A program made the position numbers and the translations under genes. Positions 13,040 through 40,292 of a DNA stretch of 64,000 nt are shown here, piece by piece. The stretch spans positions 124,001 through 188,000 of the forward strand of contig NC_018068.1 in NCBI RefSeq assembly GCF_000255115.2, read 5' to 3'. The notes beneath the pieces are model-generated. The model saw only the letters and a list, made by a program, of their open reading frames with translations. It did not search any database and was not told the origin of the DNA. Source of the stretch: Desulfosporosinus acidiphilus SJ4. Lineage in GTDB: Bacteria; Bacillota; Desulfitobacteriia; Desulfitobacteriales; Desulfitobacteriaceae. Within the stretch, counting starts at the first letter, position 1, and each line of letters begins with the position of its first letter.

Positions 13040-13290
13040 TTTCTAAAGCTATATTCGTAAATCGTTGAAAGGGAAAGTACCCTGATCTTAGGTGCTAGAG
13101 AAGAAATGCCGTGGCTGCAAGCATTTCCCGCAAAGGTTCAGGTGAAGACCACCCTGGAGTGCAAGGCTGAAAGAAGTAAGCTCTGCCGTTTCCCGCGTTA
13201 AGGGTGATCGAGCGGAAGGATAAATTCCTTTCAATTGGGTGGAACCACGGGAGTAAACTCTCGTCCCTTGTTTGGGACGAGGGTTTTTTA
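13040..13290 (+). ncRNA. T-box leader of thrS (threonine)
   Basis: A tRNA-sensing antiterminator leader. The conserved T-box sequence GGGTGGAACCACGGG lies at 13237-13251 and the terminator stem CTCTCGTCCC/GGGACGAGGG at 13258-13283 with TTTTTT after it. An AGTA element (about 13075) fits the stem I S-turn, and an ACC triplet at 13148-13150 after GAAG is a plausible threonine specifier. Uncharged tRNA-Thr pairing would stabilise the antiterminator and permit thrS transcription. Boundaries of stem I are approximate. Confidence 0.92.
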
Positions 13291-15522: not shown

Positions 15523-15528
15523 GTTCGT

Positions 15529-15652
15529 TGTCAAGTAGAAGCCATCCGCTTCTCACCTTACGGCTAAAGTCGGTAAGGTATCTTCTGGGCTTGGGCTAAA
15601 TATGTGCTCATGATTGTTTAGAAGACGGGTGGTATACATCCGTCTTTTTCTA
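15529..15652 (+). ncRNA. Ribosomal protein L20-type autoregulatory leader
   Basis: The untranslated leader of infC-rpmI-rplT contains hairpins GAAGC-CATCC-GCTTC and ACCTTAC-GGCTAAAGTC-GGTAAGGT (about 15540-15580), the usual L20-binding features in Firmicutes. It ends in a terminator hairpin GACGGGTG/CATCCGTC with TTTTTC (15623-15650). By analogy with the known L20 leader, excess L20 would bind and favour termination. Confidence 0.8.
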
Positions 15653-15681
15653 TTGGCTGATTTTTATGGGGGTGGTTTCTT

Positions 15682-37499: not shown

Positions 37500-37615
37500 T
37501 CTGGTGATCATGCCGGAGGGGTTCCACCCGTTCCCATACCGAACACGGAAGTTAAGACCTCCAGGGCCGAGCATACTTGGGGCATAGCCCCTGGGAAATT
37601 AGGTCATCGCCAGGT
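37500..37615 (+). rRNA. rrf: 5S ribosomal RNA (intact)
   Basis: TCTGGTGATCATGCCGGAGG at the 5' end pairs with TCATCGCCAGG at the 3' end. The conserved CCCGTTCCCATACCGAACAC and GAAGTTAAGACCTCCAGGGC are present. It is 116 nt. This is the only complete 5S in the window; three broken copies follow. Confidence 0.95.
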
Positions 37616-37655: not shown

Positions 37656-37705
37656 TCATAGTAAGAATTATGTAGGCATATTAAGTTAATTACAAGAAGG
37701 AAGTC

Positions 37706-37865
37706 CGGGGTTCCACCCGTTCGATCCACGTTGCAGGAGTCTGCGTTACGGGACGCAACGTGGCGAAAAGCTCGTCCGCTTTTCGTATACCGAACACGGA
37801 AGTTAAGACCTCCAGGGCCGAGCATACTTGGGGCATAGCCCCTGGGAAATTAGGTCATCGCCAGG
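37706..37865 (+). pseudogene. Degenerate 5S rRNA copy A with a two-hairpin insertion
   Basis: This copy lacks the first about 20 nt of 5S, starting at CCGGGGTTCCACCCG, so it cannot form the terminal helix. The 5S sequence is interrupted after CCCGTTC by insertion B1 and resumes at TATACCGAACACGG through CATCGCCAGG. The terminator-like hairpin follows. It is a partial tandem duplicate of the 5S 3' region and its terminator. Confidence 0.85.
37723..37785. repeat. Two-hairpin element B, copy 1
   Basis: Hairpin 1 has stem CCACGTTGC/GCAACGTGG around a loop with AGGAGTCTGCGTTACGGGAC; hairpin 2 is CGAAAAGC-TCGTCC-GCTTTTCG. The element is inserted within 5S copy A between CCCGTTC and TATACCG. Confidence 0.88.
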
Positions 37866-38006
37866 TAACAAGCGATAGACTGCCAATTATGGCAGTCTAT
37901 CTGTGTCTATCCTGAAAACTAAGTGCTAAAGGCTGTGAAAACAAAAAAAGTCCAACCATACTCAGGTAGAAACCTGAGCACACATAAATCTTATCTTTAG
38001 GATTAT

Positions 38007-39254
38007 TTAACTAGGGACTAAATTGCTGTAACAGGCAGCACTACTTTGTTCAATAGTAACGCTAAATCCAAGAGTTTGAAGTCGTTTTACGGACTTTTTA
38101 ACGATATCCGCTTTCCGACCGGCGTCAAAAAAGTCGGCTCCTAATTCTTTATATACCGTATTATTTTTGAGCATGTAGTACAGCGCAGTGAGAATAGAGT
38201 GAGCCACGGCTACTGCAGCACGATTTTTACCTCGTCTTGCGGCTATTCTTGAAAACTGAGAACTTAAATAAGTATTTTTTTGATGTGCTGCTGATTTAGC
38301 ACATTCAATAAGCGTGGTTCTAAGTATGTCGTTTCCCTTGCGGGTTTTGCCATTTTTGCGCTTGCCTGCACTTTCATTGTTACCCGGACAAATGCCAACC
38401 CATGATGCAAGATTCGACGATGATGGAAACTGATTCATATTAATCCCAATTTCGGCAATTAAGACTTGCGCACTACGCTCACCTACACCGGGAATAGAAT
38501 CGGCAATTGTCACTTGTTCATTGACAGGTTTCATCTTTTCCCGGATTTGCTGATCAAGTGAAAGAACTTGTTCTTCAAGAGTATCAATGTGCTTGAGCAT
38601 TAGACCCAATAATATCCGTTGATGTTCGCCCATAAACCCGTAAAGTGCTTCTTTAATTTGGGGTATCTTCCTTCTCATACGCATCTGTGCCTTATCTGCT
38701 ATCAGATCGACATCATTACAGCCAGCAATTAGCATGTCAAGCATATCACGGGATGATTTGCCATCAATATTGCTCACAACAGAAGCTAACTTAATATTCG
38801 CGCCTTCAAGTACCTTTTGAATACGGTTTAACTCCCTGGCACGTTCTTGAACAATGCTCCTGCGATATCGAACAAGCTCTTTGAGTTCGCGTTGCTCACG
38901 ATTAGGAATAAAGCTGCCGTTTAGGAGACCATGACGAAGTAAATCAGCAATCCACTCGGAATCTTTAACATCAGTTTTTCGACCGGGCACAGCTTTTATA
39001 TGTTGTGCATTAACAACTAAGGTTTTCATCTCCTTCATTTCTAAAAGATTGTAAATAGGCTTCCAGTATGCTCCTGTTGCTTCCATGGCGACACACTGAC
39101 AATTAGCGTTTTTCAACCAGTCGACAAGACCTAGAAGCGATGAAGTCATTGTACTGAAAGTCCTGGTTTCCTTTTTTCTTCCTAGAATTAAACAGGCAAC
39201 AATAGTGTTTTTATGGACATCCATACCACAACAGCACTCGTAAATAACGTTCAT
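38007..39254 (-). CDS. IS110-family transposase (DEDD recombinase)
   Basis: A 415-residue transposase with the two-part IS110 architecture. The N-terminal RuvC-like DEDD domain starts CCGMDVHKNTIVACL, with the acidic residues also seen in AMEATGAYWKPIY and GRKTDVKDSEWIADL. A coiled-coil middle region leads to the C-terminal Tnp_IS116/IS110/IS902 domain containing SIPGVGERSAQVLIAEIG, SWVGICPGNNESAGKRK with the candidate catalytic serine, and KGNDILRTTLIECA. The length is normal and the frame is intact, so it may be active. ATG 39254 is near the left end of the element, with about 225 bp of non-coding sequence upstream, where IS110-group elements encode their bridge RNA. Confidence 0.95.
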   Translation of the reverse strand: MNVIYECCCGMDVHKNTIVACLILGRKKETRTFSTMTSSLLGLVDWLKNANCQCVAMEATGAYWKPIYNLLEMKEMKTLVVNAQHIKAVPGRKTDVKDSEWIADLLRHGLLNGSFIPNREQRELKELVRYRRSIVQERARELNRIQKVLEGANIKLASVVSNIDGKSSRDMLDMLIAGCNDVDLIADKAQMRMRRKIPQIKEALYGFMGEHQRILLGLMLKHIDTLEEQVLSLDQQIREKMKPVNEQVTIADSIPGVGERSAQVLIAEIGINMNQFPSSSNLASWVGICPGNNESAGKRKNGKTRKGNDILRTTLIECAKSAAHQKNTYLSSQFSRIAARRGKNRAAVAVAHSILTALYYMLKNNTVYKELGADFFDAGRKADIVKKSVKRLQTLGFSVTIEQSSAACYSNLVPS

Positions 39255-39480
39255 TGAATGGCCTCCAATGAGTAAATTTACGGCGGGCCTCCTGTAGATG
39301 CATTAATCTACCCTACGTGCTCATGGCAACAATTTGTGGTGCAAGCAGGAAGCCTTGATCAGTCTATAACATCGGGCTAATAGCACCAAGACACTTCGAC
39401 CTTATGCCGCAGCAAAAGTATTTCCACTAGAACCCAGTTTTCATTCATTTGATGGTGTGGAACGAAGGACCACATGGAGG
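39255..39480 (-). ncRNA. Candidate bridge RNA region of the IS110 element
   Basis: The 226 bp upstream of the transposase is non-coding and lies where IS110-group elements make a bridge (guide) RNA that pairs with target and donor DNA. It contains GTCTATAACA (39362-39371), identical over 10 bp to the insertion-site sequence GTCTATAACAAG, and a GTAGAT/ATCTAC hairpin at about 39295-39312. Assignment as a guide loop is an inference; RNA ends and loops are not defined. Confidence 0.5.
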
Positions 39481-39509
39481 TCTATAACAAGAGATATAAA
39501 GCAAAACTA

Positions 39510-39672
39510 CCGGGGTTCCACCCGTTCGGACCCACATTGCAGGAGAATGCGTTACAAGTCGCAATGTGGCGAAAAGCTCGTCCGCTTTTCGTATACCGAA
39601 CACGGAAGTTAAGACCTCCAGGGCCGAGCATACTTGGGGCATAGCCCCTGGGAAATTAGGTCATCGCCAGGT
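39510..39672 (+). pseudogene. Degenerate 5S rRNA copy B with a two-hairpin insertion
   Basis: It has the same architecture as copy A: 5' about 20 nt missing, interruption after CCCGTTC, then TATACCGAACACGG to CATCGCCAGG and the terminator-like hairpin GAAAGACTGCC/GGCAGTCTTTC (39681-39707). Confidence 0.85.
39528..39591. repeat. Two-hairpin element B, copy 2
   Basis: Hairpin 1 stem is CCACATTGC/GCAATGTGG, a compensatory G-to-A/C-to-T change relative to copy 1. Hairpin 2 is CGAAAAGC/GCTTTTCG, unchanged. It occupies the same position in 5S copy B as copy 1 in copy A. Confidence 0.88.
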
Positions 39673-39757
39673 AAACAAACGAAAGACTGCCTTAATGGCA
39701 GTCTTTCTGTGTCTATAACAAGAAATATAAAGCAAACTACCGGGGTTCCACCCGTTC

Positions 39758-39821
39758 GGACCCACATTGCAGGAGAATGCGTCACAAGTCGCAATGTGGC
39801 GAAAAGCTCGTCCGCTTTTCC
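39758..39821. repeat. Two-hairpin element B, copy 3
   Basis: Same stems as copy 2 (CCACATTGC/GCAATGTGG and CGAAAAGC/GCTTTTC), same insertion point, one T-to-C change in the loop. Confidence 0.88.
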
Positions 39822-39844
39822 GTATCCCGAACACGGAAGTTAAG

Positions 39845-39907
39845 GATCCACACTGCAGGAGCATGCGTTACGAGACGCAGTGTGGCGAAAAGCTCATCCG
39901 CCTTTCG
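39845..39907. repeat. Two-hairpin element B, copy 4
   Basis: Inserted at a different 5S position, after GAAGTTAAG. Hairpin 1 stem is CCACACTGC/GCAGTGTGG, again compensatory. Hairpin 2 is CGAAAAGC-TCATCC-GCCTTTCG. The loop keeps AGGAGCATGCGTTACGAGAC. Confidence 0.88.
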
Positions 39908-39952
39908 TTCCAGGGCCGAGCATACTTGGGGCATAGTCCCTGGGAAATTAGG

Positions 39953-40017
39953 ATTCACACGGCAGGAGTCTTCGTCACGGGAAGCCGTGTGGCGATAGTC
40001 TCCACCGGAGACTATCG
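39953..40017. repeat. Two-hairpin element B, copy 5
   Basis: Inserted at a third 5S position, after AAATTAGG. Hairpin 1 stem is CACACGGC/GCCGTGTG with loop AGGAGTCTTCGTCACGGGAA. Hairpin 2 has a wholly different but still perfect stem, CGATAGTCTCC/GGAGACTATCG. Confidence 0.88.
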
Positions 40018-40292
40018 TATCGCCAGGTAAACAAGCGAAAGACTGCCAATTAAGACAGTCGATTTGTGTTCATATTTTAGAGAATGTGTCATCTTCACGA
40101 CAATAATAATGTCACGAAGATAACATCTTTTTAGTCACGGGTTAGACATATAAGAGCATAGGTAACTTGTTATAATATACGCAAGCTCAATAATAACGAA
40201 AGTAGGGTGTTGGCAATGTAAGAAAAGAAAAGTCATGTTTGTGAAAGTCTGGGGAAGTTCAAAATTTGTTCCAATAAAGTGAGGAGTTTGTT

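What the first reader, a model, noticed from the sequence alone, without database searches (positions are those of the whole stretch)
37706..40028. 5S-derived satellite array colonised by a covarying two-hairpin element
Three 5'-truncated 5S copies follow the true 5S. Five ~63 bp inserts sit at three different 5S positions. Hairpin 1 stems differ but always pair (CCACGTTGC, CCACATTGC, CCACACTGC, CACACGGC with their complements), and copy 5 has a fully different yet perfect second stem. The loop keeps AGGAG...GCGTTAC. Covariation implies selection on structure, so the element is a functional RNA or a DNA hairpin recognised by a protein, inserting repeatedly into 5S-like targets.
Basis: partly seen in the sequence, partly recalled or inferred. 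Interest (0 to 1): 0.8.

Follow-up and report, generated by a model that had tools for sequence, protein, structure and literature searches.

The report
Double-hairpin mobile repeat invading 5S genes
A 64-letter DNA repeat that folds into two hairpins has spread through the genomes of Desulfosporosinus bacteria, landing in broken 5S ribosomal RNA genes and in the loops of other hairpins and each time taking the place of about three letters, which makes it a small mobile element of a kind best known from mitochondria.

Summary
The array is real: a true 5S gene, three 5'-truncated 5S copies and five 64-67 bp two-hairpin inserts (E) at three 5S positions, split by an unreported IS110 element. A covariance model of the inserts finds 66 copies in this genome (E<=0.01): 15 in 5S arrays behind 6 of 8 rRNA operons, 51 dispersed. 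At E<=1e-4 it finds E in 25 of 29 genomes of the genus, 6 of 16 others of the family, 0 of 37 outside. Organism: Desulfosporosinus. Filled/empty comparisons show one unit (RATCC...CGT) replacing about three bases, usually RTC, in several unrelated hairpins and in 5S; other two-hairpin units sit inside E. E is best read as a non-autonomous mobile repeat, like REPs or mitochondrial double-hairpin elements. Inserted 5S remnants at operon ends were already published for this genus (Stepanov and Fox 2021), and their expanded 5S of Desulfitobacterium dichloroeliminans holds E at the published coordinates. My searches found no report of the dispersed family, the replacement rule or the nesting. Covariation does not point to a functional RNA: dispersed copies decay with little covariation, and G-T and A-C stem mismatches are about equally common. 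No mobilising enzyme was found.

The parts
37500..37615 (+). true 5S rRNA gene
   Evidence: Rfam RF00001, 93.8 bits
37624..37650 (.). hairpin after the true 5S; similar hairpins follow the remnants at about 37875-37901, 39681-39707 and 40037-40063
   Evidence: repeat pairs; the terminator rule is met on the minus strand only, so a terminator role on the rRNA strand is inferred
37705..37866 (+). 5'-truncated 5S remnant 1 with one insert (site 1)
   Evidence: sequence; weak 5S match 32.3 bits
37723..37786 (+). element E copy 1 (site 1; replaces CC)
   Evidence: 92.8 bits
37911..39479 (-). IS110-family insertion sequence; transposase ORF 38007-39254 on the minus strand; GTCTAT on both sides
   Evidence: absent at the same place in L029
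39510..39672 (+). 5S remnant 2 with one insert (site 1)
   Evidence: sequence; 31.0 bits
39529..39592 (+). element E copy 2 (site 1)
   Evidence: 92.3 bits
39740..40028 (+). 5S remnant 3 with three inserts (sites 1, 2 and 3)
   Evidence: sequence
39759..39823 (+). element E copy 3 (site 1)
   Evidence: 85.7 bits
39845..39908 (+). element E copy 4 (site 2; replaces ACC)
   Evidence: 90.3 bits
39952..40018 (+). element E copy 5 (site 3; replaces TC or GTC), with the other type of hairpin 2
   Evidence: 73.4 bits; hairpin type also seen in units of G013

Best explanation
E is a non-autonomous, two-hairpin mobile DNA repeat of the bacterial family that holds Desulfosporosinus and (by matching coordinates) Desulfitobacterium. 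Shown: a 64-bp unit (5' RATCC, hairpin 1 with a conserved loop, hairpin 2, 3' CGT) is dispersed; it stands in place of about three bases, usually RTC, in several unrelated hairpins and at three 5S positions, with the same two ends and, in the hosts displayed, the same orientation; other two-hairpin units sit inside E; copy number differs greatly between species; E copies in 5S remnants recombine with each other. Inferred: intact hairpins are needed for copying itself, so copying masters stay paired while inserted copies decay; a trans-acting or host enzyme acts on the folded strand and puts the element into a loop. The enzyme is unknown. In the 5S arrays E is probably mostly a passenger, spread by recombination between operon tails.
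For: 66 copies in this genome; 25 of 29 genus genomes, 6 of 16 others of the family, 0 of 37 outside at E<=1e-4. Empty counterparts for 27 of 70 host contexts at <=3 mismatches against 0 of 70 with shuffled flanks; the empty site holds 3, 2 or 4 nt in 18, 7 and 2 cases. Eight letter-identical copies at different places in G013. Flanks more complementary across the junction than random positions (duplex energy -10.7 against -5.9 in G013, -8.1 against -5.5 here; 4-bp stems in 16 of 29 and 16 of 47 hosts against about 10%). Nested units. Hybrid and tandem copies in arrays.
Against: No enzyme found; Y1 genes are not linked. My stricter test of the junction lying in a hairpin loop showed no clear enrichment (6 of 29 against 18% in G013; 13 of 47 against 16.5% here), and pairing of flanks against other loci's flanks was not significant here. 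Hosts are few types, so the 70 contexts are not independent; 2 of the 27 empty sites are tandem-element artefacts. No strain-level presence/absence at an orthologous site was shown. The strand bias seen here is not general.
Confidence: 0.6

Rival explanations
1. No dedicated enzyme: E is copied between hairpins by replication template switching or short-tract gene conversion, with shared stem and loop letters (GCC ... CWTGGC) as microhomology; arm-to-arm correction keeps stems perfect.
For: Many hosts share GCC-RTC-CWTGGC; recombination between copies is evident; no transposase is linked.
Against: The same two ends appear at three 5S sites whose flanks differ from those hairpins; eight identical copies in different G013 places look like a burst.
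Confidence: 0.27
2. E is a functional RNA or cis element of rRNA operon ends (processing signal, terminator or insulator), kept by selection on structure, with dispersed copies as by-products.
For: Presence at 5S remnants in at least three genera of the family; strong covariation among array and relatives' copies.
Against: No G-U over A-C excess; 2 of 8 operons lack it; hybrid copies have broken stems (L033); most copies here lie elsewhere; no Rfam family matches it.
Confidence: 0.1
3. Assembly artefact of repeated operon ends.
For: rRNA tails are hard to assemble, and many relatives' copies lie near contig ends.
Against: Distinct arrays behind six operons, the same anatomy in three single-contig relatives, and 51 copies outside the arrays.
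Confidence: 0.02

Closest known systems
5S expansion segments and inserted 5S remnants (Stepanov and Fox 2021, PMC7812874)
   Same: Truncated 5S copies with inserts behind the true 5S, named there for D. orientis and D. youngiae; loop C insertion site 34-37; the expanded 5S of D. dichloroeliminans contains E.
   Different: I found no statement in the main text that these inserts are a dispersed repeat family with an RTC replacement rule; the supplement was not available.
Mitochondrial double-hairpin or repetitive hairpin-forming elements (PMC2800124)
   Same: Small repeats of one or two hairpins, between genes and in rRNA genes, thought mobile, no known enzyme (passages).
   Different: Mitochondrial, no sequence relation tested; the replacement rule and the nesting are not described in the passages seen.
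REP elements and RAYT transposases; CGTC repeats (PMC3733652)
   Same: Short dispersed palindromes; CGTC repeats also lack a linked transposase (passages).
   Different: No GTAG tag at the ends of E, no E beside Y1 genes; E has two unlike hairpins.
MITEs
   Same: Short non-autonomous repeats.
   Different: E has no terminal inverted repeats and no target duplication; bases are lost.
23S rRNA intervening sequences (recalled)
   Same: Stem-loop inserts in rRNA genes.
   Different: E is mostly outside rRNA genes here.

Membership tests
5S expansion segment / inserted 5S remnant | extra structured segment inside a 5S core or a 5S remnant at an operon end | tested here: met
   five in the window; one in a full-length 5S in G062 at published coordinates
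5S expansion segment / inserted 5S remnant | retained in mature ribosomal 5S RNA | not testable with these tools
   no RNA data
Mitochondrial-type double-hairpin element | two adjacent hairpins, dispersed between genes and in rRNA genes | tested here: met
Mitochondrial-type double-hairpin element | located in mitochondrial DNA | tested here: not met
   bacterial chromosomes; resemblance in working, not membership
REP (GTAG type) | GTAG tag at one end | tested here: not met
   ends are RATCC and CGT
REP (GTAG type) | repeat flanks a RAYT gene | tested here: not met
   0 of 22 Y1 loci carry E
CGTC repeat | single short stem with CGTC at one end | tested here: inconclusive
   many dispersed copies read ATCGT followed by C, 5S copies do not; E has two hairpins
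MITE | terminal inverted repeats and target duplication | tested here: not met
Known Rfam RNA | match to a covariance model | tested here: not met
   no match on E in the window; only rRNA matches on nine element loci

The most novel reading that the evidence does not exclude
A superfamily of bacterial double-hairpin elements moves by recognising folded DNA and swapping itself for about three bases in hairpin loops, including loops of other members and of 5S rRNA genes, so that hairpins nest like Russian dolls: a structure-guided, small-replacement insertion mechanism with no described enzyme, and a source of rRNA expansion segments.
Probability: 0.3. Interest if true: 0.85.

Novelty: new variant of a known kind. 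Interest (0 to 1): 0.6.

Why it matters
It gives inserts in bacterial 5S genes, so far reported as expansion segments of unclear origin, a testable source: a dispersed mobile hairpin family with countable copies, empty sites and apparent bursts. It also offers a bacterial system for asking how double-hairpin elements, known from mitochondria without an enzyme, get into hairpin loops.

Tried and rejected
Lagging-strand insertion: a strong bias in this genome (42 to 44 of 51 by assumed terminus or local GC skew; 15 of 17 between convergent or divergent ORFs) went the other way in G013 (12 of 38; 9 of 35 at clear skew, p 0.006) and was 12 of 30 in other loci, which partly overlap G013. Dropped. 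Y1/RAYT as mobiliser: no linkage. Phage and plasmid collections: no match to one 75-base query of the dispersed form; viral contigs were not scanned. A dif-like site, to place the terminus: none. Flank complementarity against other loci's flanks: not significant here, where nearly all hosts are one repeat. Folding joined flanks with a GTC placeholder: no clear enrichment in loops; a simpler 4-bp stem test was positive. The promoter scan was not above chance by much (8 against 4.9, sd 2.3). Literature searches for the dispersed family (listings) showed none; most subscription papers and all supplements were out of reach.

Full report
The window lies at C3:124001-188000 of a 4.99-Mb, 3-contig genome. 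A pattern from the inserts, scanned over a collection of 84,980 named species genomes, hit 38 stretches, all titled Desulfosporosinus. The 4,926,837-base chromosome matches D. acidiphilus SJ4 from memory only.

After the 23S gene and a normal 5S (37500-37615) come three 5'-truncated 5S remnants with five inserts of 64-67 bp at three 5S positions. By my own alignment to E. coli 5S (recalled numbering) these lie in loop C (near 36-37), near 60-62 and near 107-108. Each insert is two hairpins; RNA folding z-scores run from -1.8 to -4.4. The genome has eight intact 5S genes. Six are followed by remnants with inserts; two, at 838 kb and 3669 kb, are not, in the 700 bases displayed.

The element is not confined to 5S. 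A covariance model of 12 insert copies (R1) finds 66 matches at E<=0.01 in this genome: 15 in the arrays and 51 elsewhere. At E<=1e-4, 25 of 29 genomes of the genus have matches, 6 of 16 others of the family and 0 of 37 outside the family (stricter filters). Of the four genus genomes without, G009 and G012 have one weak match each at E<=0.01, G022 and G024 none; one genome outside the family, G055, has one weak match, E 0.008. In G003, G007 and G015, 25 of the 30 copies I displayed (of 37) are 5S-associated and 5 dispersed, by eye; here and in G013 most are dispersed.

Most dispersed copies here sit in a second repeat, GACACTCGGCC-[E]-CATGGCCAGCGG. Empty versions read GGCC-RTCCAT-GGCC, a short hairpin with loop RTCCAT. 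In G013, E also sits in other hairpins, for example CGCTCCTTGCC-[E]-CTTGGCACCGCG and AAATGCGCC-[E]-CTTGGCGCA, and eight copies are letter-identical. Among 70 distinct host contexts (G013 plus this genome), 38 have a counterpart without E in about 1.0 Mb of held sequence at <=4 mismatches over 24 bases and 27 at <=3; shuffled flanks gave 1 and 0. For the 27, the counterpart holds 3 nt (18 cases), 2 nt (7) or 4 nt (2) where E stands. By eye, 24 read RTC (its A counted with the flank in some), one is CC of a 5S, and two are tandem-element artefacts; a few of the 11 at 4 mismatches are doubtful too. I group the hosts into about five hairpin types plus 5S, so contexts are not independent. At the 5S sites of the window the lost bases are CC, ACC and TC or GTC. 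So E = RATCC...CGT takes the place of about three bases with fixed ends. Hairpins GCC-RTCCWT-GGC are common: 35 (control 0) here, 61 (3) in G013, 19 (2) in G003, 8 (2) in G007, 15 (6) in G015, and 36 (0) in G034, a relative without E.

Tests that the site is a loop are mixed. Flanks pair across the junction better than at random positions (duplex energy -10.7 against -5.9, p 3e-9, in G013; -8.1 against -5.5, p 2e-7, here), and 4-bp stems close to the junction occur in 16 of 29 and 16 of 47 hosts against about 10%. But folding the joined flanks did not place the junction in a simple loop more often in G013 (6 of 29 against 18%) and little more here (13 of 47 against 16.5%), and own flanks pair no better than flanks swapped between loci here.

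Nesting is frequent. In G015, G003, G007 and G013 another unit, starting near TTCCTTCGCC and ending in a hairpin ...TATCGT, lies in the loop of E's second hairpin; in G013 some of these seem to carry a further insert. L282 and L283 show a related unit (AATCCTACAGCGC...CTATCGT in L282) placed inside a hairpin of the type that copy 5 of the window carries. Two-hairpin units with RATCC-like starts and TCGT ends therefore look like a wider superfamily, of which E is one branch.

Arrays evolve by recombination. Some remnants enter an insert at site 1 and leave at site 2 (L028 second copy, L033), losing the 5S between; L029 has two elements in tandem; relatives show hybrids of sites 2 and 3 and of sites 1 and 3. 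L033's hybrid stem is mismatched.

Covariation was tested, not assumed. In the 12 array copies, 16 cells changed on both sides against 4.6 in shuffles; in 79 distinct copies from relatives (5S and dispersed), 78 against 19.8. In the 51 dispersed copies here, pairing is 88.8% against 87.7%, with 8 double changes against 3.8 and a covariation score of 0.084 against 0.073: above most shuffles, but weak. If an RNA strand were selected, G-U mismatches should exceed A-C; the counts are 31 to 40 here and 15 to 16 in relatives. The alignments were fitted to the structure, which leans towards pairing. I read this as stems kept intact in copying masters, or corrected arm to arm, and decaying after insertion.

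Mobiliser. The genome encodes one RAYT-like protein (188 aa, 77 bits against a cut-off of 80), flanked by another palindromic repeat, and two Y1 fragments. E was absent from all 22 Y1 loci examined, a subset of the matches in 24 genomes, and G003 has E without any PF01797 match. One query of the dispersed form found nothing in the phage and plasmid collections.

A strand bias was striking but not general: 44 of 51 dispersed copies here (assumed terminus; 42 by local GC skew) lie on the strand opposite to leading synthesis, also 15 of 17 between convergent or divergent crude ORFs; but 12 of 38 in G013 and 12 of 30 in other loci, partly the same G013 copies. It is a property of this lineage.

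Prior knowledge. Stepanov and Fox (PMC7812874; text parts 1-6 of 8 and passages) describe expanded 5S rRNAs and truncated 5S remnants with insertions at operon ends, naming D. orientis and D. youngiae, and a loop C insertion site at 34-37. Their expanded 5S of D. dichloroeliminans lies at complement 2241573-2241816; the same coordinates in G062 (3,624,449 bases) hold a 244-nt, full-length 5S with E near its 3' end. The 5S side of this finding is thus known in kind. In that text I found no statement that these inserts are a dispersed family; it notes intergenic motifs similar to the Thermoanaerobacterium insert. Mitochondrial hairpin elements (PMC2800124, passages) are the nearest analogue; the REP survey (PMC3733652, passages) has no occurrence of Firmicutes, Clostridi or Desulf.

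Verdict: a real, widespread two-hairpin repeat that looks mobile and, in G013, recently active; 5S remnants are one of its homes. What moves it is unknown.

Noticed in passing
window 37911-39479: IS110-family element (RNA-guided transposase family) inserted between two 5S remnants, with GTCTAT on both sides; absent from the same place in L029.
   Followed up: partly
L178 (C3:4406656-4406982); repeats at L178 2144-2257 and 2575-2656: RAYT-like gene beside a different palindromic repeat family (GTACTCGCCGGAACGGCTCCCGGTGGTCTCCCGG).
   Followed up: partly
51 dispersed E copies of this genome: Strong replication-strand bias (42 to 44 of 51) that is reversed or absent in other species; cause unknown.
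   Followed up: partly
G034:C1:413556-441266 and 669121-676240; G003:C1:2306913-2350461: Clusters of GCCGTCCATGGC-type hairpins, many in one orientation, within tens of kb; context not examined.
   Followed up: no
L315 441-760 (G062): At 5S site 1 of a remnant, a different two-hairpin insert (GGCCTGCGCCACGTAGCC...), so several subfamilies use the same 5S site.
   Followed up: no
window 13056-13271 and 15527-15657: Ordinary T-box leader and L20 leader (Rfam).
   Followed up: no
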